Under the pieces are notes generated by a model. The model was not told the origin of the DNA. It worked only from the letters and a program-made list of their open reading frames with translations, and did no database searches. Positions 5,967 through 46,878 of a stretch of 64,000 bases of DNA are shown here, piece by piece. Every line of letters begins with the position of its first letter. Position 1 is the stretch's first letter. This DNA is from Peptococcaceae bacterium (lineage in GTDB: Bacteria; Bacillota; Desulfitobacteriia; Desulfitobacteriales; Syntrophobotulaceae). The position numbers were made by a program, and so were the translations under genes. Location: contig JAAYUV010000105.1 of NCBI GenBank assembly GCA_012517475.1, positions 1 through 64,000 on the forward strand. The letters run 5' to 3'.

Positions 5967-7919
5967 ATGGAATTCCAATATCAGGCTTGGGAAACTTTTG
6001 TTAAAAAAGGGAAAATTAATGAAGCTACGTCATTAGTTAATCCCATTATCATGGCCTCTTGGACCCGCTGTAAAAATCGAAACCAGAATTCCGACGAGGC
6101 TGCTTCTTTACAATTGCCTCAAGAAGAAGTGCATCGGAGAAAAGAAGCTAACCGCAGTTTGATCAAGGTTGCCAAACCATTTCTGGAGGAATTATATAGT
6201 TTTGTAAAAGGCTCCGGTTTTGTCGTTGTTCTTCTGGATAAAGATGCTTGTATCTTAGAGATTTTAGGGGACCAGGATATTTTGCAAAGATTTAAGCATT
6301 TTCGTGTGGGGGAAATTTGGGACGAGGAAACCAAAGGCACCAATGCGATGGGTGTTGTAAAGATAGAAAAAATTCCCGTCCAGGTGTATGCTACGGAACA
6401 CTATGTCCTGGCAAATCACTGCATTACCTGTTCAGGGGCTCCCATTTTTGCCCCCAACGGGGAAATGATCGGAATACTGGATGTTTCCGGCGACTTTAAT
6501 AAAGTTCATATGCATACATTGGGAATGGTAGTTGCCGCTGAAAAGGCGATTGAAAATGAACTAAGACTTAAGGCTGCGAATGCAGAAGTGATTAAGTCTT
6601 ACAATAATGTGAATGCGATTATCGAAACCATTTCCGAAGGGATTATTTCTTTTGATGAAAATGGCCGGATAACCAATATGAACCCGGTAGCTCTAAGTAT
6701 TTTGAATATGGACCATTCCAATTATCAAGGGAAATTGCTCAAGAGTATTCTTCAGAATGAGGATATTCTCCATTACATTTTAAAAAGCGGCCGCAGTATT
6801 TTTGACCACGAGTTCATTCTGGAGAAAAATCACAAACAAGTCAGGTTTTTGTTTTCAGGACAGCCGATTATTGACCATACTAAAGAAATTTGTGGGGGAG
6901 TAGCCATTATCAGGGAAATCAAGAATGTGCACAGATTGATTAACCAGATGGTTGGAGCCAGAGCCCTGTTTACTTTTAGGGACATTATCGGCGAAAGCGA
7001 AAGCATAAAAAACTGTATCCGGATTGCTTTAGATATCGCAGACAGTACGTCTTCCATAATCTTACAAGGAGAAAGCGGAACAGGAAAAGAAATGTTTGCA
7101 CAGGCTATTCATAATGCCAGCAGTTTTTCTCATGGACCATTTATTGCCATCAACTGTGGGGCTATTCCCAGGGATTTGATCGAAAGCGAACTTTTTGGCT
7201 ATGAAGACGGTGCATTTACCGGAGCAAGAAGAGGGGGACGGGCCGGAAAATTTGAATTGGCCAATGACGGCACAATCTTCCTGGATGAGATCGGTGATAT
7301 GCCTTTTGATACTCAAGTATCGTTGTTACGTGTGCTTCAGGAAAAACAAGTAGTCCGAATAGGCGGTTACAAGCCCATCCCCATCAATGTCCGGGTCATT
7401 GCCGCAACAAATAAGGTTCTAAAAGAGGAAGTCCGTAAAGGAAACTTCAGGGAGGATCTCTTCTACCGCCTGAGTGTCATTAACATTAATGTACCTCCTC
7501 TTCGCAAAAGAGAAGGGGATGTTTTGCTGTTGGCCAAATACTATCTGAGAAAAGTATCTGTCATGTTGGGTTTCGAAGCAAGTGACTTGGAACCTCAAGC
7601 AGCCAATTCCCTTGAAAACTATGATTGGCCGGGAAACGTAAGGGAATTGGCAAATGCCATGGAAAGAGCCGTAAATCTTGCCAAAGGGAAAAACATTAAG
7701 TTGGAACACTTGCCCGAACATCTGCAAAAACTGGGGAATGGGGCAAAAAATAAGGGGACATCAAAAGAGTGTTTAGAAGAATTGGAAAAGGAAGTAATCC
7801 TCAATACTTTAGAATCTGTCGACTGGAATATTTCCAAAGGGTCTTCAATTTTGGGCATTGCCCGGAATACCCTTTATCGCAAAATGGATAAGTATGGAAT
7901 TGTAGCCAAAAATTATTAG
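5967..7919 (+). CDS. Sigma-54-dependent transcriptional activator with GAF-like and PAS sensor domains (AcoR type)
   Basis: This 650-residue enhancer-binding protein drives RNA polymerase-sigma54. Residues about 1-190 form an AcoR-like/GAF sensor region (WDEETKGTNAMG; a CITCSG pair of cysteines near 155). About 210-320 is a PAS domain (ISEGIISFDENGRI). About 345-575 is the AAA+ domain: Walker A GESGTGKE, the sigma54-contact loop GAFTGA, Walker B FLDEIGD, and the R-finger region FREDLFYRL. The C-terminus is a Fis-type helix-turn-helix (ILGIARNTLYRKM). It sits directly upstream of a good -24/-12 promoter at 8151-8167, so it probably activates the DUF2193-like and channel genes and perhaps other sigma-54 sites in the window. 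The ligand is unknown. Confidence 0.93.
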   Translation: MEFQYQAWETFVKKGKINEATSLVNPIIMASWTRCKNRNQNSDEAASLQLPQEEVHRRKEANRSLIKVAKPFLEELYSFVKGSGFVVVLLDKDACILEILGDQDILQRFKHFRVGEIWDEETKGTNAMGVVKIEKIPVQVYATEHYVLANHCITCSGAPIFAPNGEMIGILDVSGDFNKVHMHTLGMVVAAEKAIENELRLKAANAEVIKSYNNVNAIIETISEGIISFDENGRITNMNPVALSILNMDHSNYQGKLLKSILQNEDILHYILKSGRSIFDHEFILEKNHKQVRFLFSGQPIIDHTKEICGGVAIIREIKNVHRLINQMVGARALFTFRDIIGESESIKNCIRIALDIADSTSSIILQGESGTGKEMFAQAIHNASSFSHGPFIAINCGAIPRDLIESELFGYEDGAFTGARRGGRAGKFELANDGTIFLDEIGDMPFDTQVSLLRVLQEKQVVRIGGYKPIPINVRVIAATNKVLKEEVRKGNFREDLFYRLSVININVPPLRKREGDVLLLAKYYLRKVSVMLGFEASDLEPQAANSLENYDWPGNVRELANAMERAVNLAKGKNIKLEHLPEHLQKLGNGAKNKGTSKECLEELEKEVILNTLESVDWNISKGSSILGIARNTLYRKMDKYGIVAKNY

Positions 7920-8150: not shown

Positions 8151-8167
8151 TTGGCATGGAATTTGCT
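8151..8167 (+). promoter_or_regulatory. Sigma-54 (-24/-12) promoter
   Basis: TTGGCATGGAATTTGCT matches the sigma-54 consensus, with GG and GC exactly ten bases apart. It precedes the DUF2193-like gene by about 50 bases and follows the gene for a sigma-54 activator. Confidence 0.8.
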
Positions 8168-8215: not shown

Positions 8216-9697
8216 ATGTCCAACGCCATTTACTCCAAGATGATCGCAGAAGCATTGGCAGCCCAAAAAGCAGATCTGAACGTCATCAAAGCCAAGAGAG
8301 GAGGTAAATTCAAAATCTCCGATGCCAAGCCCTACGTCGATGCAGTCAACGGCATGACCGCTGGGGAAGGGCAAAGTCCGGAAGTTATCCGACTTCATGT
8401 TGATTCGGTTAATGCCCACTATCAAATTTTTGAAAAGCTTACCGAGACAGTAACTCCGGAAGACGATCCGTTTGTCGAGCATTATCAGACTCCTGCTATC
8501 ATGGAAATTCTCTATGAACTGGACCCTGCTTTCCGTGGGGCAGTGGAAAAATTCATCAAAGCCCTTGCCGATAATGAGGCTCTGATCGGCAGGGAATCCA
8601 TCCGCCGGTACGGTGGTTTTTATGGGCCGACCGCAGTTGTAGATTTTGCATTTGTTCCCGGATCAACCAGCAATGTGGTCAATACTATTTTGCAGGGTCT
8701 GTCCATTGATAAAAAGTACAAACAAGCTATTTTATCCTCCAAGTCATGGGGCATGAACACTTCTTATGGCATCGGGGCGGCTTTTGCAGGTGCAATCGAG
8801 GCAGGCAAAACTGCGGAGCAAGCTGTTAAAGAAGAAATTAAAATGCTGCAACTGGTTTATGACAAGCCCATTGAAGCGCAGACAAAATTGATGACGGATG
8901 GCGGTCATACCTCCTTTGATGTCAAGAAATACATGGAGATGTACAAGGAGAGAATGCGTTCAGCCATTAAAGCCGCCGTTGATGCCGGTGTCCACTACGG
9001 AAATATTGTGACGGTTCCTGCCTATTGCGTAGGGGATGTAGCCCATCACATTGCCCAGTCCATGTTTAATATGGCTAAAGATGACGTGACCATGGCCATT
9101 ATGGAAGCCACAACGGATGTTATGGAGCAGACATTGAAAGCCGGTTTGGAACAAGGCTATAAGAGCGTCTACGATGTCCTAAGCGTGGCTACCGGTTCCA
9201 CAGCGGCAGCTGTTGCTTATATCCTGGAAAAAGACGGTTTCACCGTGCCGATGGTTGTGGATCTCCTGGCCAAGCGTTATACCAACTATGTTCAGAAATA
9301 CCCCAGCCGCGGTCCTGCTGCCGAGTTGCACAATGTCGACTTTATGGACATGATTTGGCGCGGAGCCCAGATCATTGATAAGGCGCCCAAGGGTGCCGGC
9401 GGAAAAATTAAAGGTATTCCTGTTCAACTGAGCGCGATTGATGCCAATGAGATTATCTCCAATCCGCAAAGGTATACCTATCCCGCTTGCGCAATAACGG
9501 TAAGGTTCTCGTCTCTTATGAGACTCGCTGATTTCCCGTGTCTCCTGACCAGTGAACCGGTCACCGCTACCCTTATGACAAATATCATTGCTTTAGATCC
9601 CAAGTCACCGGGTTCCCCTGCCAGAGTATGCAAAAACTGCGCAGTGACCAGCCTGATCAAACGTTGCGACTATTGCAACTGGAATTCGGCCGTATAA
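8216..9697 (+). CDS. DUF2193-like protein with C-terminal cysteine pairs, function unknown
   Basis: From memory, this 493-residue protein most resembles the DUF2193 family, known mainly from methanogenic archaea; the family call is tentative. It is soluble, with no signal or membrane segment. The body is alpha-helical in character (many AA/AG helices, YGGFYGPTAVVDFAFVPGS near 145). The C-terminus carries paired cysteines, CKNC and CDYC, separated by eight residues (near 475-490), which suggests a zinc or iron-sulfur site. AGGAGG lies 8-10 bases before ATG 8216. It has its own sigma-54 promoter and is followed by an MIP channel and then the H4MPT/methanofuran island. This position makes a role in C1 substrate entry plausible, but nothing in the sequence proves a reaction. 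Confidence 0.6.
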   Translation: MSNAIYSKMIAEALAAQKADLNVIKAKRGGKFKISDAKPYVDAVNGMTAGEGQSPEVIRLHVDSVNAHYQIFEKLTETVTPEDDPFVEHYQTPAIMEILYELDPAFRGAVEKFIKALADNEALIGRESIRRYGGFYGPTAVVDFAFVPGSTSNVVNTILQGLSIDKKYKQAILSSKSWGMNTSYGIGAAFAGAIEAGKTAEQAVKEEIKMLQLVYDKPIEAQTKLMTDGGHTSFDVKKYMEMYKERMRSAIKAAVDAGVHYGNIVTVPAYCVGDVAHHIAQSMFNMAKDDVTMAIMEATTDVMEQTLKAGLEQGYKSVYDVLSVATGSTAAAVAYILEKDGFTVPMVVDLLAKRYTNYVQKYPSRGPAAELHNVDFMDMIWRGAQIIDKAPKGAGGKIKGIPVQLSAIDANEIISNPQRYTYPACAITVRFSSLMRLADFPCLLTSEPVTATLMTNIIALDPKSPGSPARVCKNCAVTSLIKRCDYCNWNSAV

Positions 9698-10718: not shown

Positions 10719-11681
10719 ATGGATAAGTTTTGGGTAAAAACCGGTGCGCGTTTGCATCTTGGCCAACTGGATCTAAACGGATCTTTAGGCCGTTTGTATG
10801 GAGGACTGGGATTAGCCATTGACCGGCCTCAGTTAGAGATTACCGCAGAAAAAAGCAGCAAATTATCTCTGATTGGGTCAGAGGAAAAAAGACTGGAAAT
10901 CATCTCGCGTAAATATTTGGAATACTATGATCTTCCCGGTGTGAAGATAGAGTTGGTTCAATCCTTGCCCAGCCATAGCGGGTTGGGTTCAGGTACACAG
11001 CTTTCTTTGGCACTGGGTTTTGCTATTACCCGGGTTTATGGATTACAACCTTCTTTATTGGAAATAGCCGGGGTTACGGACAGGGAAAGCAGCCGCTCCG
11101 GAATCGGCGTTGCGGCTTTTGAGCAAGGCGGCTTTCTGGTTGATGGAGGCAAGCCGGTCAATCCGATAGCTCCAAAATCCGTCTTTGATGTCCCCCCGAT
11201 TCTCGCCCGCATCCCCTTCCCCGAAGAATGGGCCATTATTTTGGCCTTACCGGATAAGGAAGACAAAATGTCCGGAGAAAAAGAGGAAAATGCGTTCCAG
11301 TCATTGCCGCCGATGGCGGAAGAGGTGTCGGCCACGATTTGCAGGCTTTTAGTGATGAAGCTTCTTCCCGGATTAATGGAGAAAGATTTGGAAAGCTTTG
11401 GTCAAGCCCTGATAGAGATTCAAAAGCAGGTAGGAACCTATTTCGCTCCGGTCCAGGGAGGATATTATGCTTCCGATCAAGGGTTCCGGGTTGCGGAATA
11501 TCTGCTGGCACAAGGGGCAACCGGGGTAGGTCAGAGCTCCTGGGGTCCGGCGGTTTACGGATTCATCACGCGGGAAAAACAAGACGGCTTACTGGAAAAG
11601 ACTCAAAAATTCTTAGGAGAAAAAGTCCGGGTTTGGGCGGTTTCAGGCAGAAATCAAGGGGCAAGCTGGGGCTGGAAATAG
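10719..11681 (+). CDS. mptG: Beta-ribofuranosylaminobenzene 5'-phosphate synthase
   Basis: This enzyme condenses p-aminobenzoate with PRPP, releasing CO2 and PPi, in the first committed step toward the arylamine of H4MPT. At 320 residues it has normal length for this GHMP-kinase-like family. It begins with the typical ARLHLGQLDLNG stretch (residues 8-20). The glycine-rich phosphate loop PSHSGLGSGTQ is near 88, and SRSGIGVAAFEQGGFLVDGG is near 125. AAAGGAGAGG precedes the ATG. It opens the long collinear H4MPT/methanofuran block. The genes for its substrate p-aminobenzoate (PabAB, PabC) are about 18 kb downstream on the same strand. Confidence 0.92.
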   Translation: MDKFWVKTGARLHLGQLDLNGSLGRLYGGLGLAIDRPQLEITAEKSSKLSLIGSEEKRLEIISRKYLEYYDLPGVKIELVQSLPSHSGLGSGTQLSLALGFAITRVYGLQPSLLEIAGVTDRESSRSGIGVAAFEQGGFLVDGGKPVNPIAPKSVFDVPPILARIPFPEEWAIILALPDKEDKMSGEKEENAFQSLPPMAEEVSATICRLLVMKLLPGLMEKDLESFGQALIEIQKQVGTYFAPVQGGYYASDQGFRVAEYLLAQGATGVGQSSWGPAVYGFITREKQDGLLEKTQKFLGEKVRVWAVSGRNQGASWGWK

Positions 11682-11718
11682 ACCGGCAGCATGAGATTGA
11701 AGTAGGGAGAAAAAAGAG

Positions 11719-12267
11719 ATGAGCAGAGAGGAATTACAACCAAGAATTGCGTGGGGGATTACGGGATCCGGACATTTTTTGTCTTCCTGTATGGAATTTT
11801 TACTGCGTCTGAAGAAGGTTGACATATTTCTCTCCAAAGCGGGGAAAGAGGTACTGCATTACTATAGTTGGTATGAACAGTTAACATCTTCCGGTCATCC
11901 CCTGATTTTGGATGCCAGCGTCAGCGGGCTACCTGTGACCGGACTGTATACGGGCAAATATGATCTGGTGGTCATTGCACCGGCCACTTCCAATACCATA
12001 GCTAAAATGGCATACGGGATCGCAGATAATCTTATTACCAATTTATTTGCCCATGCCGGGAAGTGCAGGATACCCACCCTCATTTTACCCTGTGATTCCG
12101 CTCCTGAGATTAAATCAACCACCCCGCAAGGAGAACAGGTGTCGGTCTATGCAAGAGAAATCGACAGAAAGAACATTGCCACTCTGGCAAATTGGGACCT
12201 GGTTACGCTTGCGGACACTCCTGAACACCTAAAAAAAGAAATAGAAAAAGTATATCTCGGAAGATAG
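11719..12267 (+). CDS. Flavoprotein, probable dihydromethanopterin reductase (DmrB/AfpA type)
   Basis: This 182-residue protein of the flavoprotein/decarboxylase fold has an early GITGSGH nucleotide loop, the IAPATSNTIAKMAYGIADNLITN flavin segment near residues 90-115, and PCDSAPEI near 130. Archaeal relatives reduce dihydromethanopterin to H4MPT using FMN. The position between mptG and the pterin-synthase-like gene supports this role, although electron-transfer flavoproteins of the same family exist. The ATG follows AGGGAG. It is separated from its neighbours by short gaps, as in an operon. Confidence 0.75.
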   Translation: MSREELQPRIAWGITGSGHFLSSCMEFLLRLKKVDIFLSKAGKEVLHYYSWYEQLTSSGHPLILDASVSGLPVTGLYTGKYDLVVIAPATSNTIAKMAYGIADNLITNLFAHAGKCRIPTLILPCDSAPEIKSTTPQGEQVSVYAREIDRKNIATLANWDLVTLADTPEHLKKEIEKVYLGR

Positions 12268-12279
12268 GGGTTGGTCCGG

Positions 12280-13644
12280 GTGGAAAAGTATCTGCTTATT
12301 ACCGGTCAAATTGCCCGGCGGGCTTTATCCAGGGTCGCTGAGGGAATAAAACATATAGACTTGGAGATCAAGTCCCTGGGTTGTACGGTGGCGGCCCTCA
12401 TGACTACCGGGTTTATTGCCAGGGAACTGGCCCGAGGGGATAAATTGGGCAGTGACGTAATCATTATCATTCCAGGCTTATGCCAGGGACCTCTGGAACC
12501 AATTATTGAGGGGACAGGATGTAAAGTGTTGAGGGGACCTAATGATTTGGTCGACTTGCCTGCATTTTTCCAAATCGGGCTAAAGGGAGAGCAGGAACAC
12601 GCTGACAACAATAGGAGTTGGCCCGTTCAGATTCTGGCGGAGATCGTTAACGCTCCGCGGATGACAGAAAAAGAGATCGTGGATAAAGCACTGTATTACA
12701 GGGAATGCGGAGCCGACATTATTGATCTGGGCGGAGACGTGGACCAACCGTTTCCCCGCCTGGGAGAAGTCATAAAGGTACTAAAAAGTTATGGATTTAC
12801 GGTGAGTGTCGACAGCCACCAAAAAGAAGACATATTGGCTGCCGATAAAGCCGGCGCGGAACTGATTTTAAGTTTTACCTCCAAGAATTTGGAGATTGCC
12901 AAGGATCTGACAAGTAAAGTAGTGGTCATCCCTGATGACGGGGAAAGTATGGAATCCTTGTATCGCAACATGGAAAAATTAAACCAATGGAATATTCCCT
13001 ACCTGGTCGACCCTATCCTGCCTCCTTTAACCATGGGTCTGGCAGAAGGGATTGGGCGTTATCTCCGGGTGGGAAAGGAATTTCCCGATTGTGAAATGCT
13101 CATGGGATTAGGGAATGTAACAGAACTGGCAGATGCGGACAGCACCGGTATTAATGCGCTCATGATGGGGATTGCGGGAGAGCTTCAGATTAATTACATC
13201 CTGACGACGGAAGTAAGCCACAGGGCGAAGGGAGCCGTACAAGAGGTCAATCTGGCACGCCGGCTGATCCGCAAGGCCATCTTTGAGCAAAGAGTTCCCA
13301 AACATTTGGATGAAAGCCTGTTGACCATCAAAGATCCGTCGGGAAATTCTTATGACAAAGCCGAGTTATACGCCATGCATCAGGTAATCCGGGATAGAAA
13401 TTACAGAATATTTGTCCATGATCAAATTTATGTTTTTAATGCCCATTCCTTTTATCAGGGAACTTCCGCCCGGGAAATATTCTCCAGATTGGATATTCAC
13501 GATCCCCGTCATGCCTTTTACCTGGGAGTAGAATTGGGAAAAGCGGAAACCGCCCTGCAGTTAGGAAAGAGATATGTTCAAGACAATCCCCTGCGCTGGG
13601 GTTATCTCGGTGAGGCTAACATGAGAAAGAAGGCCTTGGTATGA
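12280..13644 (+). CDS. Dihydropteroate-synthase-like protein of H4MPT gene clusters (DUF6513/MJ0107 type)
   Basis: A DHPS-like barrel occupies about residues 120-380 (AGAELILSF, GLGNVTELADADSTG, TTEVSHRAKGAVQEVNLARRL). It is preceded by a roughly 110-residue N-terminal domain that is characteristic of the archaeal and methylotroph H4MPT-cluster protein. The inferred job is coupling the pterin to the RFAP arylamine in H4MPT synthesis. GTG 12280 is chosen because AGGGG lies nine bases upstream; TTG 12271 abuts that site. The stop overlaps the start of the next gene (ATGA). Confidence 0.8.
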   Translation: MEKYLLITGQIARRALSRVAEGIKHIDLEIKSLGCTVAALMTTGFIARELARGDKLGSDVIIIIPGLCQGPLEPIIEGTGCKVLRGPNDLVDLPAFFQIGLKGEQEHADNNRSWPVQILAEIVNAPRMTEKEIVDKALYYRECGADIIDLGGDVDQPFPRLGEVIKVLKSYGFTVSVDSHQKEDILAADKAGAELILSFTSKNLEIAKDLTSKVVVIPDDGESMESLYRNMEKLNQWNIPYLVDPILPPLTMGLAEGIGRYLRVGKEFPDCEMLMGLGNVTELADADSTGINALMMGIAGELQINYILTTEVSHRAKGAVQEVNLARRLIRKAIFEQRVPKHLDESLLTIKDPSGNSYDKAELYAMHQVIRDRNYRIFVHDQIYVFNAHSFYQGTSAREIFSRLDIHDPRHAFYLGVELGKAETALQLGKRYVQDNPLRWGYLGEANMRKKALV

Positions 13645-16368: not shown

Positions 16369-16710
16369 ATGGGCAGTATTTCCGGATTATTGATTACTGT
16401 CCGCACAGGCCGGCAAGGGGCGGCGATGGAAAAAGGGAAATCCTCGACTGAGTATGTTCAGGAAATTTCCACCTTGGCGGTTTGTCCGGAAGATGTCGTT
16501 TCCCTGGGTTTGGGCGAGGACCAAAAGGCTGTTCTGAAAAGTTCAGCCGGAGAAATCACGGTGACGTGCCGTTCTGTGGAAGGGCCGCAAGGGATTTTCT
16601 TTCTACCGCTGGGGCCTTTAGCCAACCGGCTGATTGATGAAGAAACCCACGGGACGGGAGTTCCGGACTTTAAAGGGATTCCAGTAATCCTTTCACCCTT
16701 AGCTAACTGA
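16369..16710 (+). CDS. fwdD: Formylmethanofuran dehydrogenase subunit D (molybdopterin dinucleotide-binding)
   Basis: This 113-residue subunit corresponds to the C-terminal dinucleotide-binding domain of bis-MGD enzymes, split off as FwdD. It shows the N-terminal GLLITVRTGRQG, then VCPEDVVSLGLGEDQKAVLKSSAGE and a PLGPLANRL segment. Archaeal FwdD partners FwdB to enclose the Mo/W cofactor, whereas the Fhc complex of methylotrophic Proteobacteria lacks it. Its presence therefore argues for a redox-active enzyme. It lies 50 bases before fwdB. GGGGGGAGG precedes the start. Confidence 0.82.
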   Translation: MGSISGLLITVRTGRQGAAMEKGKSSTEYVQEISTLAVCPEDVVSLGLGEDQKAVLKSSAGEITVTCRSVEGPQGIFFLPLGPLANRLIDEETHGTGVPDFKGIPVILSPLAN

Positions 16711-16759: not shown

Positions 16760-18088
16760 ATGACAGTAACCGTTCATGAAGATGTGGTTTGTGCGTTTTG
16801 TGGTTGTCTCTGTGACGACCTTCAAGTAGAGGTAGAAGATAATAAGATTACCAAAGTCAGCCATGTCTGCACGATAGGCCGGAATAAACTGATGCATTCC
16901 CAATCCGGTTTGGCCTCGCTCCGGGTAAACGGCAAAGAGACAAATTGGGAAGAGGCACTTTCGGAGGCGGCCGGTATTCTGGCCAGAGCTAAAGCTCCCC
17001 TGGTATACGGGTTGAGCAGTACCACAACGGAGGCCATCAGTGAAGCGGTTGCCCTGACGGAGCTCATCGGAGGGACGGTCGACAACCCGTCATCCTACTG
17101 ACACGGGCCGGGCGTTCTCGCCCGCCAGCAAGTTGGGCTGGCTTCATGTACTTTAGGAGAAGTAAAAAACCGGGCAGATCTTCTGATCTATTGGGGTGCA
17201 AATCCCATGGAGTCTCATATGCGCCATTTGAGCCGGTATTCTGCGATGTCCAAGGGACTCTATGCCTCTGAAGGGCGCAAAGGACGGAAAGTGGTGGTCA
17301 TCGACGTAAGGCCCACCCCAACCTCGAAGACTGCGGATCTCTTTCTTCAGGTCACACCCGGACAAGATTTTGAAATTGCCCATGTCCTCCGTTGTTTGAT
17401 CAAAAACATCCCGCTGGAAGGATTGACGGAAACAAGTCAAATAGGCGGTGTTCCTTTATCCCAATGGCGGGAATTGGCTGAAATGATGAAACAATGCCAT
17501 TATGGAGTGGTCATGTTTGGCATTGGCCTTACCCAGAGCCGGGGCAAGGACTTGAATGTTGAAGAGATTAATACTTTGGTCAGCGAATTAAACCGCTATA
17601 CCCGCTTTTATGCGATTGCCATGCGGGGACACGGCAATGTGAACGGAAGCAATCAGGTATTGGTTTGGCAGACCGGTTATCCTTTAGCGGTAAATTTTCA
17701 GCGCGGGTACCCCCGTTTTAATCCCGGGGAATTCAGTGTAGTGGATATGCTTACCCGCCAAGAGGTGGATGCGGCTTTGATTATTGCCACCGATCCCGGT
17801 GCCCATTTACCGCAGGCTGCGGTCCGTTATCTCCAAAGCATCCCGACCATTGTACTCGAACCGCATGAAAACTTAACCACTGATTGGGCCAATGTCGTGA
17901 TTCCTGTTGCTCCGGCCGGGGTGGGTGCCGAAGGAACATTTTACCGGATGGATAATGTCTCCCTGCGTCTGAAAAAATTAGTGGATTTTCCGGTCTCCTC
18001 TGACCGGGAAGTATTGCAATCGATCAAAGAAAGAGTAATTCAGCTCAAGGGTGATCTCCAGGATAAAGGAGAGAATAAACCATGTTGA
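16760..18088 (+). CDS. fwdB: Formylmethanofuran dehydrogenase catalytic subunit B, selenocysteine-containing
   Basis: FwdB holds the Mo/W bis-MGD and one [4Fe-4S] cluster and interconverts CO2 and formate, which FwdA joins to methanofuran. From ATG 16760 (AAGGAGGAG upstream) to 18088 the frame encodes 442 residues with one in-frame TGA at 17099-17101, codon 114. It is followed by HGPG, so the motif reads U-H-G-P, the site of the metal-ligating Cys/Sec in archaeal FwdB/FmdB (near residue 118). Cluster cysteines are visible at 11, 14, 18 and 37 (CAFCGCLC ... C). Homology runs on without a gap after the stop codon (YWGANPMESHMRH, RGHGNVNGSNQ, ATDPGAHLPQ). Ending at the TGA would leave 113 residues without an active site. 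The frame overlaps fwdA by 7 bases. Confidence 0.9.
17099..17142 (+). promoter_or_regulatory. UGA selenocysteine codon and candidate bacterial SECIS hairpins
   Basis: Two adjacent perfect 6-bp hairpins follow the UGA. The first is CGGGCG/CGCCCG (17109-17114 with 17119-17124) with a UUCU loop. The second is GCCAGC/GCTGGC (17124-17129 with 17137-17142) with a 7-base AAGUUGG loop, whose apex is about 28 bases from the UGA, within the usual bacterial SECIS window. They share G17124 and so cannot both form fully. The UGACACGGGCC start resembles the fdhF recoding site as I recall it. SelB binding is inferred. Confidence 0.65.
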
Positions 18089-19722
18089 AAATTGTAAACG
18101 GGCAGGTCTATGACCCCCTCAATGGGGTCAATGGGGAAGTCAGGGAGATTGTTATAGATCACGGAATGATTGTTGAACCTTCGCCCGACCAGAAAATCAG
18201 CGAAACCATCAATGCTTCCGGTTGCGTGGTGATGCCCGGCGGAATAGAAATCCACAGCCATATTGCGGGGGCAAAAGTAAACAGTGCCCGCAGCATGTGC
18301 CCGGAAGACCACTATGATCATTTTAAGGTGAGCACTGCCGGAATACGCTCCGGGACAGGGTATACCGTTCCAAGCACCTTCCTGACGGGTTATGAGTATT
18401 CCAGGCTGGGATATACCACTGCTTTTGAAGCAGCTGTCCCCCCCTTGGAGGCGCGGCATGCCCATGAAGAGCTGGAAGATACTCCGTTATTGGATTCCGG
18501 GATCTATACCCTGATGGGCAATAATTATATGATTATGAAAGTATTAAGCGAACAGGATGAAATTGGACGCCGGGAACGGCTGCGCGATCTGGTAACCTGG
18601 CTTTTGACAAGCAGCAAGGGTTATGCGGTGAAAGTGGTCAATCCGGGAGGGGTTGAAAGCTGGAAATGGAGTCAGGGGTCTGTGGACCTGGATACGAGGG
18701 TTCCTCCTTTCGGAATAGCTCCCAGGAAGCTGCTTCAGGAACTTGTTGAAGTTATTCGGGAATTAAAGCTGCCGCACGGACTGCATCTTCATGCCAACCA
18801 CCTGGGTGAAGCGGGTAATTTCATAACGACATTGGAAACCATGCGCACCCTGGAAGGATACCCTGTCCATTTTACCCACCTTCAATTTCATTCTTACGGG
18901 ATGACAAAAAAGGGAGGGATCCGGTCCGCAGCCCGGGAGATTGCCGAATATCTGAACGGTCATCCCGAATTTACCTGTGACATAGGTCAAATTGTCTTTG
19001 GGCCGGCGACCACGATGACTGCGGACTCTCCCATGCAATTCAGGCTTCATCAGATGACCGGGAACAAATGGATCAATTCCGATGTGGAAATGGAAACCGG
19101 GTCAGGGATTGTTCCCATGATGTACCGGCCTTCGGTTCTTTTCAATGCTATCCAATGGTGCATCGGTCTGGAATTGCTCTTACTCATTAAAAATCCCTGG
19201 CAGATTGTCTTGACAACGGACCATCCCAATGCCGGGCCTTTTACGTCCTATCCCCAAATTATCCGCTTACTGATGGATAGGGATTACCGTAACTCTGTTC
19301 TGGAGCAGCTCCACCCCAAGACAGTGAACTATACTCATCTCAGGGAGTTGGACAGGGAGTATTCTCTGGAGGAAATCGCCATCGTGACCCGTTCCGCTCC
19401 GGCCAGGGCTTTGGGGCTATCCCATAAAGGGCGGTTAGGAATCGGTGCTGAGGCGGATGTGGCGATTTATAGGATACAAGACGATAAAGAAAAAATGTTC
19501 GCCGGACCGGCCTATGTATTAAAGGGTGGTAAGGTCGTGGTACGCGACGGAGAAGTACTTCAGAGTTTTGCCGGCAAGAGACTGATCGTGGAGCCGGATG
19601 GCGCCAAAACATTGCTCCCGGATCTTGCCAGGAATTTTGCTGACTATTATTCCATTGAGTTAAGCAATTATGCTGTTCAGGATGAATATCTTTCACGTCC
19701 GGAGGTGATACCATGCATCTGA
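18082..19722 (+). CDS. fwdA: Formylmethanofuran dehydrogenase subunit A (amidohydrolase)
   Basis: This binuclear-metal amidohydrolase condenses formate with methanofuran, or hydrolyses formyl-MFR. The protein has 546 residues. Metal ligands are visible: HSH at 58-60, a carboxylatable lysine in AVKVVNPGG near 175, histidines in HLHANHLGE near 235 and THLQFHSYG near 265, and the catalytic aspartate in TTDHPNAGPF near 378. AAAGGAGAG lies before the start, which overlaps fwdB by 7 bases. The stop overlaps ftr by 10 bases. Such overlaps imply coupled synthesis of the complex. Confidence 0.93.
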   Translation: MLKIVNGQVYDPLNGVNGEVREIVIDHGMIVEPSPDQKISETINASGCVVMPGGIEIHSHIAGAKVNSARSMCPEDHYDHFKVSTAGIRSGTGYTVPSTFLTGYEYSRLGYTTAFEAAVPPLEARHAHEELEDTPLLDSGIYTLMGNNYMIMKVLSEQDEIGRRERLRDLVTWLLTSSKGYAVKVVNPGGVESWKWSQGSVDLDTRVPPFGIAPRKLLQELVEVIRELKLPHGLHLHANHLGEAGNFITTLETMRTLEGYPVHFTHLQFHSYGMTKKGGIRSAAREIAEYLNGHPEFTCDIGQIVFGPATTMTADSPMQFRLHQMTGNKWINSDVEMETGSGIVPMMYRPSVLFNAIQWCIGLELLLLIKNPWQIVLTTDHPNAGPFTSYPQIIRLLMDRDYRNSVLEQLHPKTVNYTHLRELDREYSLEEIAIVTRSAPARALGLSHKGRLGIGAEADVAIYRIQDDKEKMFAGPAYVLKGGKVVVRDGEVLQSFAGKRLIVEPDGAKTLLPDLARNFADYYSIELSNYAVQDEYLSRPEVIPCI

Positions 19723-22483: not shown

Positions 22484-23422
22484 ATGGAAAGAAAACCTTT
22501 CTTCAAAAAAAAGCGGATAGGGATCCTTGGAACAGCCAAAGGGTCTCATGTTCAGACCATGTCCATCGTTTTACAAGGGTTGGGGGCCGAAATTACCCTG
22601 GTTGATCCGAAAAGACTGACTTCCTTCCTTCCCCAGTGCAGTACGGTATTTGCGGAAAGCGATGGATTGGTAACAAATTTGGAAGACCTGGACGCCTTGG
22701 TGGTACGGTCTCTCCCGGGCGGATCCTTGGAACAGGTGATTTACCGGGTAAATGTCCTTCACCACTTGGAAATACTCGGTTTAAAAGTGATCAACAATGC
22801 CTCGTTAATTGAGAAAACGGTAGATAAATTTTTCACCACCGCCTTATTGGCCAATGCCGGACTGCCGGTCCCCAAAACCATTGTCACCGAACGGTTCGAC
22901 CAGGCGATCGAAGCAGTAAGACAGATAGGTGCCGTTGTGGTCAAACCCGTTTTCGGTTCCCTGGGCAAAGGGATTGTTTTGGTCGAAGATCCGGATATTG
23001 CCCACAGAGTTTTCCGGGCACTCGAAATGGGGCGCTATATCTATTATCTTCAGGAATTCCTGCCAAATGGCAATGAAGACCTCCGTCTATTTGTCGTAGG
23101 AGGTCAAGTGGTTGGCGCGATGCGCCGTCGTGGCCAAAATTGGAAAACCAACATCGCCTGCGGGTCGACGGCTGAAACCTATAAACCTGAGAAGGAAATT
23201 GCCCAACTGGCTATCCGGACTGCTAATATCCTGAAAGCAGACTACCTGGGGGTAGATATCCTCATTAGCAATGGTACTCCCTATGTGATAGAAGCCAACG
23301 GAATTCCCGGCTGGACCGGGTTGCAGTCGGTAACTGAAGCAGATATCGCCGGTATTCTGGCGGAATATATCCTGGCGGAGATTAAAAAGCATGAATACAG
23401 AAATAAAAAACAAGGGGTTTAA
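22484..23422 (+). CDS. RimK-type ATP-grasp ligase, possible H4MPT:glutamate ligase (MptN-like)
   Basis: This 312-residue ATP-grasp protein has a VVKPVFGSLGKGI nucleotide loop (near 150), YYLQEFLPNGNEDLRLFVVGG (185-205), RRGQNWKTNIACGST (215-230) and VDILISNGTPYVIEANGIPGW metal ligands (260-280). This is the RimK/MptN layout. In methanogens MptN adds glutamate to H4MPT to make tetrahydrosarcinapterin, and methylotroph clusters carry a similar gene. The exact product here is unknown. The end overlaps the next gene by 32 bases. Confidence 0.78.
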   Translation: MERKPFFKKKRIGILGTAKGSHVQTMSIVLQGLGAEITLVDPKRLTSFLPQCSTVFAESDGLVTNLEDLDALVVRSLPGGSLEQVIYRVNVLHHLEILGLKVINNASLIEKTVDKFFTTALLANAGLPVPKTIVTERFDQAIEAVRQIGAVVVKPVFGSLGKGIVLVEDPDIAHRVFRALEMGRYIYYLQEFLPNGNEDLRLFVVGGQVVGAMRRRGQNWKTNIACGSTAETYKPEKEIAQLAIRTANILKADYLGVDILISNGTPYVIEANGIPGWTGLQSVTEADIAGILAEYILAEIKKHEYRNKKQGV

Positions 23423-24326
23423 CTGGAAAATGGCGTTGATGGCCCAAACTGCCTGCATATTGGAAGCGGACGCACCTAAAGTCGGCAACGTCAACCGATT
23501 TCATGATTTTGCCGATGCCTCCCTGGAGGATTTTCACTGCAGCGCTTTGGCCATTGGACGTCCATTCGGCTATCTGGAAAGGCTGGGAGTGGGAAAAACG
23601 GTTTACGATGCAGTAAAGGCCACCCGGAAAGTCGTTTTAACCAATACCAATCTTGGGATTATCCTGCTGCTTGCCCCTCTGGGGATGGCCTGGTGCCGGA
23701 TAAGATCCCGGAAAGATCCGGATTCCGGGAATCACGGGTCTCAGAAATCTTTGCCATTAGCCTTAAAACGGGAAATCGGAGAGGTTTTGCAAAGCCTTGG
23801 CGCAGAGGATACCCGCCATGTCTATCAGGCCATCCGCCTGGCCTCTCCCGCCGGGATGGGGGAAGTACAGCAATATGACGTGTTGCAGGAAGAATCTCCC
23901 CCCATTCCCTTACTGAAGGTTATGAAACTCGCGGCAGGGAGGGACCTGATCGCCAGGCAATACAGGGATGATTTTGAACTGGTTCTTGGTATAGGATATG
24001 AAGCATTGAATCATTCCCTGGAAAAAGGGTTAGCCTTGCCCCAAGCGATTGCCCATAGCCACCTGATTCTGCTGAGTCAGGTACAGGATTCTTTGATAAC
24101 CCGTAAGCTCGGTCCGGAGTGGGGCAGGGAAGTGCAAAAACGGGCGCGCTTTGTCTGGGAACAGGGAGGATGGCTTACTGCAAAGGGGCTGCAAGAAGTC
24201 CGGGAATTTGACAGCTGGTTACGGGGAGAAGGGCACAGCCTGAATCCCGGTACGACTGCCGACCTCATGGCGGCGATCATCTTGGTATACCTCATGGAGA
24301 ATGATCAGAAAAAAAGAAGGTGCTAA
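23391..24326 (+). CDS. CitG/MdcB-like (triphosphoribosyl-dephospho-CoA synthase family) protein of C1 clusters
   Basis: This 311-residue member of COG1767 has an N-terminal ADAPKVGNVNRFHDFADASLEDFHCSA segment (24-50), matching the family's PGNV...D motif, and NTNLGIILLLAPL near 85. Classical members attach ribosyl groups in citrate lyase prosthetic-group synthesis, but no citrate lyase genes are here. A cognate gene recurs in H4MPT/MFR clusters, so a ribosyl- or pterin-related transfer is inferred. It overlaps the preceding ligase gene by 32 bases, and its stop sits one base before mfnB. Confidence 0.75.
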   Translation: MNTEIKNKGFNWKMALMAQTACILEADAPKVGNVNRFHDFADASLEDFHCSALAIGRPFGYLERLGVGKTVYDAVKATRKVVLTNTNLGIILLLAPLGMAWCRIRSRKDPDSGNHGSQKSLPLALKREIGEVLQSLGAEDTRHVYQAIRLASPAGMGEVQQYDVLQEESPPIPLLKVMKLAAGRDLIARQYRDDFELVLGIGYEALNHSLEKGLALPQAIAHSHLILLSQVQDSLITRKLGPEWGREVQKRARFVWEQGGWLTAKGLQEVREFDSWLRGEGHSLNPGTTADLMAAIILVYLMENDQKKRRC

Positions 24327-24327
24327 C

Positions 24328-25131
24328 ATGTCATCACAAACAGCTCTCATGATCAGTGTCGTCAGTGGGAAAGAAACGCTTGCCGCCTTAGAGGGGGGAG
24401 CTGATATTATTGACGTCAAGAATCCCGCTGAAGGGGCCTTGGGGGCTCCGACCCCCGCCGCGGTACAGGACGTTTGTCTCAGATTGAAGGGGAGTAAACC
24501 TTTCAGCATTGCATTAGGGGAATTTCCCGGGAAGCCGTGCGCTGCGGCTTTGGCGGCCTTGGGCAGTGCTTTTTTCCGGCCGGATTTTGTCAAAATCGCT
24601 TTTATCCCCCATCATTCTCCTGAGGAAATCTGCAAAACGCTTCAGGAAATAAAAAAAAGCCTATCCATCATAGACTTCAAAAGAATTTCTTTAGTCTCCG
24701 TGGCTTATGCCGATACCCTCAGTTTTGCTTCCTGGAAACTGGAACGTTTTGCAGAGGCCTCCAGGGAAGGGGGGGCTGACGGGTGTCTGGTTGATACCTG
24801 GGAGAAAAAAAACAAGACACTCCTTGATTATTTACCTTTGGATGCAATCCAAAAATGGATTGGAGAATGTCATCGTCAGGAATTATTCTGCGGACTGGCG
24901 GGTTCGCTGAGTTTTGCCGACGTGGCCAGTATTAGCCGATTTGAGCCGGATATTATCGGGGTTAGATCGGCAGTCTGCGGGGGAGACCGCCTGGGTGGGA
25001 CAGTATCCGCTCCCAAAGTGAAAGCGCTTAAAGAAATAATTGACCGGAGAAAGCATGAGACGGAATACAGATCCCCCGACCGGTACCTACCTGCAAGAGG
25101 CCGGCAAGCCTTTCAGGATCTTGGCCATTGA
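24328..25131 (+). CDS. mfnB: 4-(hydroxymethyl)-2-furancarboxaldehyde-phosphate synthase
   Basis: MfnB builds the furan ring of methanofuran from two glyceraldehyde-3-phosphate molecules. The 267-residue TIM-barrel protein (DUF556) shows GGADIIDVKNPAEGALGAP, with the catalytic lysine at 31, FVKIAF near 90, and ADGCLVDTW near 150 with the likely second catalytic residue. ATG 24328 follows GAAGGTG and the preceding stop by one base. The last 104 bases are antisense to mfnE on the opposite strand; that C-terminal tail (about 25 residues) may be a read-on extension not needed for activity. Confidence 0.9.
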   Translation: MSSQTALMISVVSGKETLAALEGGADIIDVKNPAEGALGAPTPAAVQDVCLRLKGSKPFSIALGEFPGKPCAAALAALGSAFFRPDFVKIAFIPHHSPEEICKTLQEIKKSLSIIDFKRISLVSVAYADTLSFASWKLERFAEASREGGADGCLVDTWEKKNKTLLDYLPLDAIQKWIGECHRQELFCGLAGSLSFADVASISRFEPDIIGVRSAVCGGDRLGGTVSAPKVKALKEIIDRRKHETEYRSPDRYLPARGRQAFQDLGH

Positions 25132-25681
25132 TAAACCAAACCGGCATACCCATAGGTAATTGCTGACGGAAAAAAGGGTCAACATCCGGTTCCCATAACG
25201 AAGGATCCAGGTCCGTGCTTTTGACAAGAACCAGCATGGAACAGTCTATTCGTTTAGCCAGGTAGGCCGCAATGGAATCGGAGGTAACATCCCAGGAACG
25301 GGGAAGAGCGGCTTCGGGTACCTGGCTGAAAAATTTGGAGACTAAAAGGATTAGGGGCTTGCCAGGAGGAGTCAGGCCAGCCGGGATGAGTGGTTCCGTA
25401 TTCAATAAATAAGTCATCTCGCTGCCCGGGATAAACTCCCTGAGCAAGTAAGCGTATTGATCCATGGCCCCTAAGGCCATAAAATGGCAAGTCTCTTCGC
25501 CAAGTCCGAATTTTCTTCCGTATTCACGGACAAGATCGGCAAAGGGTCCCCCCCCTGCCACGATCAATAATGGATGTACCGAAGCATATGTGGCGATGAT
25601 ACTTCCGATACGTCGTAAAATATCTCCGTTATTATGATAAATTAAGCTGCCTCCAAGCTTAAGGATGATGGGTTTCGGCAT
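25028..25681 (-). CDS. mfnE: Amino-acid-kinase-family protein, [5-(aminomethyl)furan-3-yl]methyl phosphate kinase-like
   Basis: This 217-residue amino acid kinase fold protein has an N-terminal LKLGGSLIYHN phosphate loop, IVAGGGPFADLVREYGRKFGL near 42-62, and WDVTSDSIAAYLAKRI near 130. MfnE phosphorylates the aminomethyl-furan phosphate before coupling to the tyramine-glutamate arm. It is the only gene of the C1 island on the minus strand. It runs into mfnB with a 104-base tail-to-tail overlap and is divergent from mfnD, so it needs its own promoter. Confidence 0.85.
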   Translation of the reverse strand: MPKPIILKLGGSLIYHNNGDILRRIGSIIATYASVHPLLIVAGGGPFADLVREYGRKFGLGEETCHFMALGAMDQYAYLLREFIPGSEMTYLLNTEPLIPAGLTPPGKPLILLVSKFFSQVPEAALPRSWDVTSDSIAAYLAKRIDCSMLVLVKSTDLDPSLWEPDVDPFFRQQLPMGMPVWFINGQDPERLAGLLQVGTGRGICIPSHAFSGQLFL

Positions 25682-25785
25682 TTCCGTTATCCTCCGGCGA
25701 ATGATTTCTTACGAAAATAAAAGACGGAACTTAAGATTAACTTGATTAATTATAACAAAGAGTGATGCAAGATGGGGGTAATATT

Positions 25786-26805
25786 TTGAAGCTTTTTATC
25801 TTTGAGTATTTCGCATCCGGGATGAAGGAAAGTCATGAGCTTAAGAAGGCCGGATATGCCATGCTGGATGCTGTCCTTCGGGATTTTACCAGGATTCCGG
25901 AAATAAATATCATGACCATTTTTGACTACTCCCTGAAAGAGCGGGTTTTCCAGGATCCTCTCGCCCCGGGATTAGAAATTTTCTGGAGAAAAGGCCGGGA
26001 AGACGGGCAGAAATTGTTTGAAGAAATATTAATCAGATGTGAAGCGGTATTAATCATTGCCCCTGAGACAGCCGGTATTCTGGCCGAATTGACGGCTCTG
26101 GCCGAAAACAGGGGGAAGATCGTTCTGGGTTCATGTTCCAAAGCCTTGAACGTTACCTGTCATAAAGCCAAACTTCTGAGTCTGATGGGAAAGAAAGGTC
26201 TGCCCGTTCCCCGTTCGGATATTTTGCAGAAACCATTGGCTTCCGTTGCCAAGGCCCAAATCCTAGAAATGTTTTCTTACCCTTTGGTGATTAAGCCTGT
26301 TTGCGGGACGGGGGGAGAAGGAGTAAGACTGATTCAGACCGGAGAACAACTGGATAAGGTGGTTGAACAGTTAGCCACTATGGGGGAAGAGACATTTCTT
26401 GTTCAGGAATATATTCCGGGCCAGGCGGTAAGTGTCAGCCTCTTTGTTCTTGAAGGCAAAGTGCTGCCTCTAAGCTTAAACCGGCAAATCCTAAAGGATG
26501 AAGACGAGCTTGGTTTCCGGGGGATTACTGTTCCTTACGAACACTCCCTGGATCAGGATATTATAAAAATTGCTTCAGCAGCCTGTGAACAGGTGGAAGG
26601 ACTTAAAGGCTTTATCGGAGTGGATTTGGTGGCGGGTCCTGAGGGACCGGTTCTGATAGAGATCAACTCCCGGATCACGCTGGCTTATGTAGCCCTGAGA
26701 GAAGTGGTGTCCCGGAATTTGGCCGGGGACCTGCTGAACCTTTGTGTGGAAAACAGGGTCCCACCAAAGCCCGAGATTCAAGGAAGGTATACCTATCGGC
26801 TTTAG
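25786..26805 (+). CDS. mfnD: Tyramine--L-glutamate ligase (ATP-grasp)
   Basis: MfnD joins glutamate to tyramine through its gamma-carboxyl in methanofuran synthesis. The 339-residue ATP-grasp protein begins LKLFIFEYFASG, as archaeal MfnD does. The nucleotide loop VIKPVCGTGGEGV is near 175, VQEYIPGQAVSVSLF near 205, and the metal site VLIEINSRITLAYVAL near 290. TTG 25786 is preferred because GGGGG lies seven bases upstream and the homologous N-terminus begins there; in-frame ATGs at 25762 and 25765 would add an unconserved leader. It is divergent from mfnE. Confidence 0.88.
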   Translation: MKLFIFEYFASGMKESHELKKAGYAMLDAVLRDFTRIPEINIMTIFDYSLKERVFQDPLAPGLEIFWRKGREDGQKLFEEILIRCEAVLIIAPETAGILAELTALAENRGKIVLGSCSKALNVTCHKAKLLSLMGKKGLPVPRSDILQKPLASVAKAQILEMFSYPLVIKPVCGTGGEGVRLIQTGEQLDKVVEQLATMGEETFLVQEYIPGQAVSVSLFVLEGKVLPLSLNRQILKDEDELGFRGITVPYEHSLDQDIIKIASAACEQVEGLKGFIGVDLVAGPEGPVLIEINSRITLAYVALREVVSRNLAGDLLNLCVENRVPPKPEIQGRYTYRL

Positions 26806-26890
26806 CTTTGGGGTGGAAGCTTATACCCGGAAATTCCAATGATTCCTGCTTGATTAGAACCTTTAAAAAATGAAAAGGAGAGGATGGGCT

Positions 26891-27955
26891 TTGACTGGCA
26901 TACTGGGGCTGGATATCGGAGGCGCCAATACCAAAAGCTGTTCTTTGAGAATGGACAAAGGAGAAATCTCTATGGCAAGAGGAGCTTCCGTTTATCATGA
27001 AGTCTGGAGAAAGCCCGAAGGTCTGAGGGATGTCCTGATGGACCTGAGAGCTTCCATGATACAAGGAGACACAACGATAGAAGGCATTGCCCTGACCATG
27101 ACTGCCGAACTTTGTGACGGGTTTGAATCAAAAACGCAAGGAGTACTCTTTATCCTCGGGATGGTGGAAGAGGTTTTTGCAGATGTGCCTGTCTATGTCT
27201 GGACGACCCGGGGAGTCTTTGCCCATCCATGTGAAATAAGGAAAGAACCCTTGCAGGCGGCAGCCGCCAATTGGCTGGCGAGTGCCACGGCACTGGCCGG
27301 GAGTCCTTTTCTGGCGGGAAATCCGGTAATTTTTGCCGATATGGGAAGTACGACTACGGATATCCTCCCTTTGGCCTCCGGAAAAGTTTTAGCCAAAGGA
27401 AAAACAGATACGGAGCGTTTGCTTTACGGAGAGCTGCTCTACACAGGGACACTCCGAACGGGGGTACACTCCATTCTGGATGAAGTGTATCTGGAAGGGC
27501 ATTGTTGCCGGGTGGCTCACGAATACTTTGCGATCAGTGCGGACGCTTACCGGTTTTTAGGCCTGATCACCGAGACAGACTATGATGTTCCTACCCCGGA
27601 CGGAAAGAACCGCGATATCGATGCCTGTGCCAAACGGTTGGCTCGTGTGGTGGGAGCAGAACCGGAAGAAATCGGCATAAATAACATTTACAGCATTGCC
27701 CGGGCAGTCATGGAAAAGCAGACCAGACGAATTACGGACAATATCTTACGGATCATCTCCAGAAAAGATGTACCGGAACCGAAGCAATTGATTACAACAG
27801 GCCAAGGCAGTTTTATTCTGGGAGAGGTGGCCCGCCGCCTGGGATGGAAAGAAACACCCTGGTGGCAGATGATTCCCGGAGGATATGGACAACTGGCCAT
27901 GACCAGCTATGCCGTAGCCTGGTTACTCTACCGGCAAATCCAGAAAGAGATGTGA
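26891..27955 (+). CDS. mfnF: Hydantoinase/oxoprolinase-like methanofuran synthesis protein
   Basis: This 354-residue ASKHA-type protein of COG1548 begins ILGLDIGGANTK and contains TMTAELCDGFESK (60-72), NPVIFADMGSTTTDILPL (145-160) and TTGQGSF near 305. MfnF couples the furan diphosphate to the tyramine-glutamate moiety. TTG 26891 is chosen because GGAGAGG lies seven bases upstream; the in-frame ATG at 26870 precedes that site. It follows mfnD by 85 bases. MfnA (tyrosine decarboxylase) and MfnC (aminotransferase) are not seen in the window. Confidence 0.88.
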   Translation: MTGILGLDIGGANTKSCSLRMDKGEISMARGASVYHEVWRKPEGLRDVLMDLRASMIQGDTTIEGIALTMTAELCDGFESKTQGVLFILGMVEEVFADVPVYVWTTRGVFAHPCEIRKEPLQAAAANWLASATALAGSPFLAGNPVIFADMGSTTTDILPLASGKVLAKGKTDTERLLYGELLYTGTLRTGVHSILDEVYLEGHCCRVAHEYFAISADAYRFLGLITETDYDVPTPDGKNRDIDACAKRLARVVGAEPEEIGINNIYSIARAVMEKQTRRITDNILRIISRKDVPEPKQLITTGQGSFILGEVARRLGWKETPWWQMIPGGYGQLAMTSYAVAWLLYRQIQKEM

Positions 27956-40135: not shown

Positions 40136-40459
40136 ATGGCTGATTACAAAGAGTTTTTAGACAGTATTAATCGGAAACTCTATCATGAAGGAGAATGGCG
40201 GTGGCAAGAGGGGGAATATACAGTTACCCGTTCGCACCAATATACTGCTCCCGGATGCCATAATTCCTGCGGTATCCTTCTTTATACGAAAGACGGAAAA
40301 CTGGAAAAGGTAGAAGGAGATCCTCTTAATCCGTTTAATAACGGCAAGCTGTGTATGAGGTGTCAAAACCTGGCCGAAGCTGTTAACCATCCCGACCGAT
40401 TAAAATACCCCATGAAAAGGGTTGGTGAAAAACCAAAGGGCTTAAAGACTTGGGACTGA
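40136..40459 (+). pseudogene. Molybdopterin oxidoreductase, N-terminal fragment
   Basis: The first about 103 codons encode the N-terminal [4Fe-4S] domain of a bis-MGD oxidoreductase: CHNSCGILLY near 42, KVEGDPLNPFNNGKLCMRCQNLAEAVNHPDRLKYPMKRVG. The family sequence stops at GEKPKG. The DNA then continues directly as the middle of moaA, so the frame ends five codons later. Over 600 residues of the enzyme are missing. A good ribosome site and sigma-54 promoter are retained. Confidence 0.8.
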
Positions 40460-46868: not shown

Positions 46869-46878
46869 TGTTATTACA

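What the first reader, a model, noticed from the sequence alone, without database searches (positions are those of the whole stretch)
16760..18088. Selenocysteine-containing formylmethanofuran dehydrogenase (FwdB) in a bacterium
Seen: one in-frame TGA at codon 114 of an otherwise continuous FwdB frame, followed at once by HGP. Known: archaeal FwdB/FmdB carries the Mo/W-ligating Cys or Sec in a (C/U)HGP motif near residue 118. Inferred: the TGA is recoded. Downstream hairpins at 17109-17124 and 17124-17142 suit a bacterial SECIS, and no other lesion lies in the gene. I know Sec-FwdB only from methanogens; a bacterial version with a bacterial SECIS would be unusual.
Basis: partly seen in the sequence, partly recalled or inferred. 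Interest (0 to 1): 0.95.

Follow-up and report, generated by a model that had tools for sequence, protein, structure and literature searches.

The report
Selenium-containing CO2/formyl enzyme in bacteria
The gene for a one-carbon enzyme best known from methane-making archaea carries, in this anaerobic bacterium and its relatives, an internal stop codon that is almost certainly read as selenocysteine at the metal-binding site; this form was long credited to methanogens, though one bacterial case had been reported before.

Summary
fwdB (16760-18088) has one in-frame TGA (17099-17101) exactly where archaeal FwdB has the W/Mo-ligating Cys. The rest of the frame is under purifying selection, and TGA is also the gene's normal stop.

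The genome has selA, selB, selD (a UGA form and a Cys form) and a tRNA-Sec with anticodon TCA, plus a UGA-containing formate dehydrogenase. Nine distinct FwdB genes carry TGA at this codon, including isolates and one complete genome, from Desulfosporosinus, Gracilibacter, Formimonas, Moorella and a Solidesulfovibrio MAG. In them the 15 codons after TGA are the most synonymously conserved stretch of the gene. This is a bacterial, in-gene SECIS.

The window genome carries a second, parallel operon whose FwdB has Cys. On the tree that Cys copy and Cys copies of Synergistaceae sit inside the Sec clade; the two such Synergistaceae genomes tested lack selA and a clear tRNA-Sec.

Not wholly new: Sec-FwdB is proven in methanogens, and a 2016 paper (PMC4807772) reported Sec-FmdB in a planctomycete and two unclassified bacteria. 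New here, as far as searched: a Bacillota-centred clade, its conserved SECIS, and paired Sec/Cys full-pathway operons.

The parts
16760..18088 (+). fwdB, formylmethanofuran dehydrogenase subunit B, 442 aa with Sec at 114
   Evidence: TIGR03129 538.8 bits, cut-off 327.8; PDB FwdB 5t5i, 8rja
17099..17101 (+). in-frame UGA, codon 114, read as selenocysteine; aligns with the W/Mo-ligating Cys118 of solved FwdB
17102..17146 (+). codons 115-129, the most synonymously conserved 15-codon stretch of the gene in nine Sec forms
17109..17124 (+). SECIS hairpin 1: stem GGGC/GCCC (plus C-G closing pair), loop GUUNUS
17124..17142 (+). SECIS hairpin 2: stem GCCAGC/GCUGGC, loop with invariant GU; one pair C-G to U-A or U-G in relatives
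16369..16710 (+). fwdD
   Evidence: NF042908 65 bits, below its cut-off 175
18082..19722 (+). fwdA (amidohydrolase subunit, metal-binding motifs present)
   Evidence: TIGR03121 729.8 bits
19713..20648 (+). ftr, formylmethanofuran:H4MPT formyltransferase
   Evidence: TIGR03119
20645..21511 (+). fwdC
   Evidence: TIGR03122
21496..22470 (+). mch, methenyl-H4MPT cyclohydrolase
   Evidence: TIGR03120
14252..15115 (+). probable methylene-H4MPT dehydrogenase (MtdB-like; name by context)
   Evidence: only weak dehydrogenase-fold matches; conserved position in the Bacillota operons compared
10719..13644 (+). H4MPT synthesis genes: beta-RFAP synthase, AfpA/dihydromethanopterin reductase-like flavoprotein, DHPS-like protein
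22484..27955 (+). MptN-, CitG-, MfnB-, MfnD- and MfnF-like genes (methanopterin and methanofuran synthesis)
   Evidence: most are below NCBIfam cut-offs
8151..8167 (+). sigma-54-type promoter upstream of DUF2193, the head of the cluster
   Evidence: 1 match, 0.13 expected by chance; same motif before the Cys operon
5967..7919 (+). sigma-54 activator with PAS domain
   Evidence: PF00158

Best explanation
This is a genuine bacterial selenoprotein: the catalytic subunit of a formylmethanofuran dehydrogenase. Shown: the fwdB frame has UGA at codon 114, in a genome that encodes SelA, SelB, SelD and tRNA-Sec. Inferred: SelB carrying Sec-tRNA-Sec binds the hairpin element right behind the UGA (17109-17142) and Sec is inserted. 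Inferred from homology: Sec114 ligates W/Mo of a bis-MGD cofactor next to the [4Fe-4S] cluster held by Cys11/14/18/37. FwdB and FwdD then interconvert CO2 and formate, FwdA joins or removes formate at methanofuran, and Ftr and Mch pass the C1 unit to and from H4MPT. In this organism the pathway probably runs oxidatively from methylene-H4MPT to CO2. The genome also holds a parallel Cys operon, most likely a selenium-independent isoenzyme.
For: Single TGA aligned with the active-site Cys. Nine distinct TGA genes in isolates, a complete genome and MAGs of two phyla. selB, tRNA-Sec (64.5 bits, anticodon TCA), selA and selD found. All other Sec-FwdB genomes tested have tRNA-Sec of at least 64.9 bits and selA; the two tested Synergistaceae with Cys copies nested in the Sec clade have neither. 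Codon conservation after the UGA in Sec forms only. Hairpins complete in all nine, never both in Cys forms. pN/pS about 0.12 after the TGA. Other UGA selenoprotein genes in the genome: selD and fdhA on the same contig, each followed by a GGUCU-loop hairpin. Whole Fwd-Ftr-Mch cluster and a parallel Cys operon.
Against: No protein data. Neither hairpin matches the textbook bacterial SECIS fully (rule recalled, not looked up): the loop of hairpin 1 starts 13 nt after UGA, a little close, and the loop of hairpin 2 (29-35 nt) does not begin with G in this gene, unlike the GGUCU loops of the genome's fdhA and selD. Covariation rests on one pair and does not beat shuffling (111 of 500). Synonymous-recoding fold tests per gene range from P 0.002 to 0.46. 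One relative (SbF1 MAG, L063) has AGA (Arg) at the site.
Confidence: 0.96

Rival explanations
1. The TGA is a sequencing or assembly error, or a fresh nonsense mutation that makes a pseudogene.
For: The window genome is a 115-contig assembly, and a Cys paralogue exists that could make this copy dispensable.
Against: The same codon is TGA in eight further distinct genes, including isolates and a complete genome. Coding sequence after the TGA is under purifying selection. A conserved RNA element follows.
Confidence: 0.01
2. UGA is read through or reassigned to another amino acid (for example Trp), or the frame is made as two pieces with a restart at ATG 17207.
For: A 293-aa downstream ORF starts at 17207.
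Against: TGA ends fwdB itself and seven neighbouring cluster genes, and Trp is TGG in this gene. The site is the metal-ligand position, Cys in most relatives. The stretch just after the UGA, before 17207, is conserved both as protein and at synonymous sites.
Confidence: 0.01
3. The UGA is decoded as Sec, but the enzyme used in the cell is mainly the Cys isoform of the second operon; the Sec copy is minor or conditional. (A refinement of the best explanation, not an exclusive alternative.)
For: A parallel Cys operon is in the genome, with the same type of sigma-54 promoter. Selenium-dependent switching between Sec and Cys forms is known in methanogens (M. kandleri, cited in PMC4807772; M. maripaludis, abstract of PMC11097638).
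Against: Desulfosporosinus lacus has two Sec copies and no Cys copy detected; Gracilibacter, D. metallidurans and the Moorella-group genomes have only a Sec copy detected. No expression data.
Confidence: 0.25

Closest known systems
Selenocysteine FwdB/FwuB of methanogens (Methanopyrus kandleri, Methanococcus maripaludis, Methanocaldococcus jannaschii)
   Same: Same subunit family, same Sec position in the UHGP motif; a Cys isoenzyme can coexist, as in M. kandleri
   Different: Bacterial host with SelA-type machinery and a SECIS inside the gene right behind the UGA; archaeal SECIS elements lie in untranslated regions (own knowledge) and there is no 3' UTR here, since fwdA overlaps the end of fwdB
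Sec-FmdB of planctomycete P2 and two unclassified bacteria (PMC4807772, 2016)
   Same: Bacterial Sec form of the same subunit, fmdD-B-A-C operon, and Sec and Cys copies in one genome
   Different: Different phylum. Here a clade across several Bacillota lineages plus a Desulfovibrionaceae MAG, with the conserved RNA element shown and whole pathway operons duplicated.
W-dependent FwdB of Methanothermobacter wolfeii (PDB 5t5i)
   Same: Alignment over the full length; Sec114 opposite Cys118; Fe-S cysteines conserved
   Different: Cys in place of Sec; no polyferredoxin FwdF or FwdG gene found in this cluster
Bacterial Sec formate dehydrogenase with in-gene SECIS (own fdhA, L097)
   Same: UGA followed by His and an immediate downstream hairpin; same genome and decoding machinery
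   Different: fdhA SECIS has a GGUCU loop at 19-23 nt; the fwdB element has two hairpins with GUU-type loops

Membership tests
FwdB/FmdB (TIGR03129) | Match to the curated family model over its full length | tested here: met
   538.8 bits against cut-off 327.8, model 1-421 of 421
FwdB/FmdB (TIGR03129) | N-terminal [4Fe-4S] cysteines | tested here: met
   C11, C14, C18, C37 invariant in 15 bacterial and archaeal FwdB
FwdB/FmdB (TIGR03129) | Cys or Sec metal ligand in (C/U)HGP | tested here: met
   UGA at the position of Cys118 of 5t5i and Cys of the own paralogue
FwdB/FmdB (TIGR03129) | Partner subunits FwdA, FwdC, FwdD in an operon | tested here: met
   FwdD is below its model's cut-off (65 of 175 bits)
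FwdB/FmdB (TIGR03129) | CO2 reduction or formylmethanofuran oxidation activity | not testable with these tools
   needs enzyme assay
Bacterial Fhc formyltransferase/hydrolase complex (FhcB without metal site) | Loss of the metal site in subunit B | tested here: not met
   all four Fe-S cysteines and the Cys/Sec ligand position are present
Bacterial selenoprotein gene | In-frame UGA at a Cys-equivalent redox or metal site | tested here: met
Bacterial selenoprotein gene | Genome encodes SelA, SelB, SelD and tRNA-Sec | tested here: met
Bacterial selenoprotein gene | SECIS hairpin immediately downstream of UGA | tested here: met
   conserved beyond coding in nine Sec forms and absent as a pair from Cys forms
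Bacterial selenoprotein gene | Textbook SECIS geometry (loop about 16-37 nt from UGA with G among its first bases) | tested here: inconclusive
   hairpin 1 has G first in its loop but starts at 13 nt; hairpin 2 is in range but its loop starts with AA here; bSECISearch was not available
Bacterial selenoprotein gene | Selenium actually present in the protein | not testable with these tools
   needs mass spectrometry or 75Se labelling

The most novel reading that the evidence does not exclude
Selenocysteine in FwdB arose anew inside Bacteria from a Cys ancestor, with a two-hairpin SECIS of its own type. It then spread with a complete methanofuran/H4MPT operon through several Bacillota lineages and into Desulfovibrionaceae, and reverted to Cys where the selenium machinery was lost. 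Some genomes keep Sec and Cys versions of the whole operon as selenium-dependent and selenium-independent isoenzymes.
Probability: 0.45. Interest if true: 0.65.

Novelty: new member of a known kind. Interest (0 to 1): 0.52.

Why it matters
FwdB has been read as an archaeal methanogenesis enzyme, and a 2026 review of prokaryotic selenoproteins still describes it for methanogenic archaea. A bacterial Sec-FwdB clade, partly in isolates (Desulfosporosinus lacus, D. metallidurans, Moorella sulfitireducens), makes it testable whether selenium improves CO2/formyl chemistry in the same scaffold, since Sec and Cys versions of the whole pathway sit in one genome. Standard gene calling splits such genes at the UGA, so the pathway is easily missed in anaerobic C1 metabolism of Bacillota, including the dichloromethane fermenter Formimonas.

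Tried and rejected
Sequencing error, pseudogene, UGA reassignment and split translation were considered and rejected. Fold energy alone (z -1.33) and pair covariation (111 of 500 shuffles as high) were not significant on their own; the sequences are too alike. Two strict SECIS readings were compared (hairpin 1 or hairpin 2 as the SelB contact) and could not be separated. Papers on strain DCMF were searched for FwdB or selenium: none mentioned. Peng et al. 2016 on bacterial selenoproteomes does not name FwdB in its main text. A literature search combining Peptococcaceae, acetogens and methanopterin found nothing. A structure of DUF2193 was predicted but is too poor to search with (mean pLDDT 62.5). 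Archaeal Sec-FwdB sequences were not retrieved, so the origin of Sec was judged only against Cys archaeal and bacterial rows. The planctomycete P2 sequence was likewise not available.

Full report
What was seen. The frame 16760-18088 encodes FwdB, 442 residues, interrupted once, by TGA at codon 114 (17099-17101), in the string NPSSY-U-HGPG. The same gene ends with TGA, and seven neighbouring cluster genes also end with it, so TGA is an ordinary stop in this organism. The protein matches the curated FwdB model at 538.8 bits over its whole length and aligns with solved FwdB chains; residue 114 falls on Cys118 of the 5t5i chain, the metal ligand (own knowledge and PMC7331816). The cysteines C11, C14, C18 and C37 are invariant in an alignment of bacterial and archaeal FwdB. 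This distinguishes it from FhcB of the aerobic C1 pathway, which lacks the metal cofactor (PMC10100899).

Is the TGA real? The window's order was searched (74 genomes). TGA at the same codon was found in Gracilibacter sp. BRH_c7a, in Desulfosporosinus lacus (two copies) and in D. metallidurans (names). A scan of one genome per species added the complete genome of Candidatus Formimonas warabiya, Moorella sulfitireducens and a Solidesulfovibrio MAG of another phylum. A phylum sample added a second, distinct gene from the Moorella group. In all there are nine distinct genes. After the TGA the gene is under purifying selection, with pN/pS about 0.12 against the nearest relative. Error and pseudogene are excluded for the group.

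Machinery. The genome holds selB, tRNA-Sec of 64.5 bits with anticodon TCA, selA and two selD genes, one of them with its own UGA. A formate dehydrogenase with UGA lies on the same contig just beyond the window. The other genomes with Sec-FwdB that were tested also have tRNA-Sec (64.9 bits or more) and selA. The two tested Synergistaceae genomes whose Cys-type FwdB sits inside the Sec clade have no selA and no tRNA-Sec above the curated score. The SbF1 MAG, whose codon is AGA (Arg), keeps the RNA element and selA, but its best tRNA-Sec match, 48.2 bits, is at the level of the secondary matches in other genomes. It may be a recent loss or an assembly fault.

The RNA element. Among the nine Sec genes, codons 115-129 are the most conserved synonymous stretch of the whole gene: mean pairwise codon identity 0.81 against 0.41 elsewhere, reached by none of 20,000 permutations. 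Cys-type relatives show 0.41 in both. No Cys-type gene has both; only the AGA gene does. A pattern built from them hits only TGA-type FwdB loci among the 117 fetched, which is partly circular since the pattern came from these genes. One pair of hairpin 2 changes C-G to U-A and to U-G. Covariation is otherwise too sparse to count, and energy tests per gene are weak; the case rests on codon conservation. The own fdhA and selD genes have GGUCU-loop hairpins behind their UGA (loops read by eye from the printed sequence). The fwdB element differs in loop sequence and has two hairpins, so which one SelB grips is open.

Context. fwdB lies in a long cluster: beta-RFAP synthase, flavoprotein, DHPS-like, an unassigned gene (13641), MtdB-like dehydrogenase, ATP-grasp, fwdD, fwdB, fwdA, ftr, fwdC, mch, then genes like mptN, mfnB, mfnD and mfnF. 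Several assignments are below curated cut-offs and rest on gene order. The FwdA metal-binding motifs are present. The cluster is preceded by a sigma-54-type promoter at 8151-8167 and a PAS/sigma-54 activator gene. A second, near-complete copy lies on another contig of the same genome, about 72% identical in DNA, with the same promoter motif, and its FwdB has Cys. The two contigs are close in G+C (0.45 and 0.41), but a binning error cannot be excluded for either; the assembly has 3.8% estimated contamination.

History. On a tree of 35 FwdB proteins the Sec rows form a group within which the own Cys paralogue, Synergistaceae Cys copies and the Arg copy are nested. Next outside are Cys-type Bacillota, then archaeal Cys rows. 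The simplest reading is one gain of Sec in Bacteria, later loss to Cys, and transfer between lineages.

Function. By homology, the complex couples CO2/formate chemistry at the Sec-W/Mo site with formyl transfer to methanofuran, and Ftr and Mch link it to H4MPT. The oxidative direction is inferred from the presence of an MtdB-like dehydrogenase and the absence of methanogenesis genes in the cluster.

Prior knowledge. Sec-FwdB is experimentally known from methanogens. The 2026 and 2022 reviews list it, and the 2026 one describes it for methanogenic archaea. A 2016 planctomycete paper already reported a bacterial Sec-FmdB, including Sec and Cys forms in one genome. A 2023 study recognised bacterial FwdB acquired from archaea. 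The finding is therefore a well-supported new bacterial group of a known kind. Its distinctive parts are the conserved in-gene SECIS, the duplicated Sec and Cys operons, and the match between loss of Sec and loss of the selenium machinery.

Noticed in passing
window 8216-9697 and L054 1546-3027: DUF2193 (no known function, no PDB relative by sequence) heads both operons and is 95% identical between them, while the other genes are 56-83%; it also lies near FwdB in two Synergistaceae. Suggests gene conversion and a role in the same C1 pathway.
   Followed up: partly
window 35437-36660 and 40136-40459: Pieces of molybdopterin oxidoreductases: a C-terminal formate-dehydrogenase-like part and a separate short Fe4S4 N-terminal domain, with unrelated genes between them; possibly a broken or rearranged gene.
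   Followed up: no
window 46748-46884: Moco (molybdenum/tungsten) riboswitch, 62.7 bits, downstream of solute-binding/transport-like and Moco synthesis genes that could supply FwdB.
   Followed up: no
L063 (Desulfosporosinus sp. SbF1 MAG): FwdB with AGA (Arg) in place of TGA but the hairpin element retained: a fossil SECIS or an assembly fault.
   Followed up: partly
window 28811-29257: Protein matching gas vesicle accessory protein GvpU (94.7 bits) next to the methanofuran genes.
   Followed up: no
window 50183-50458 (minus strand): T-box leader, 117.8 bits.
   Followed up: no
window 3097-4368: Protein related to corrinoid activation protein AcsV (309 bits, below the cut-off), upstream of the cluster.
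   Followed up: no
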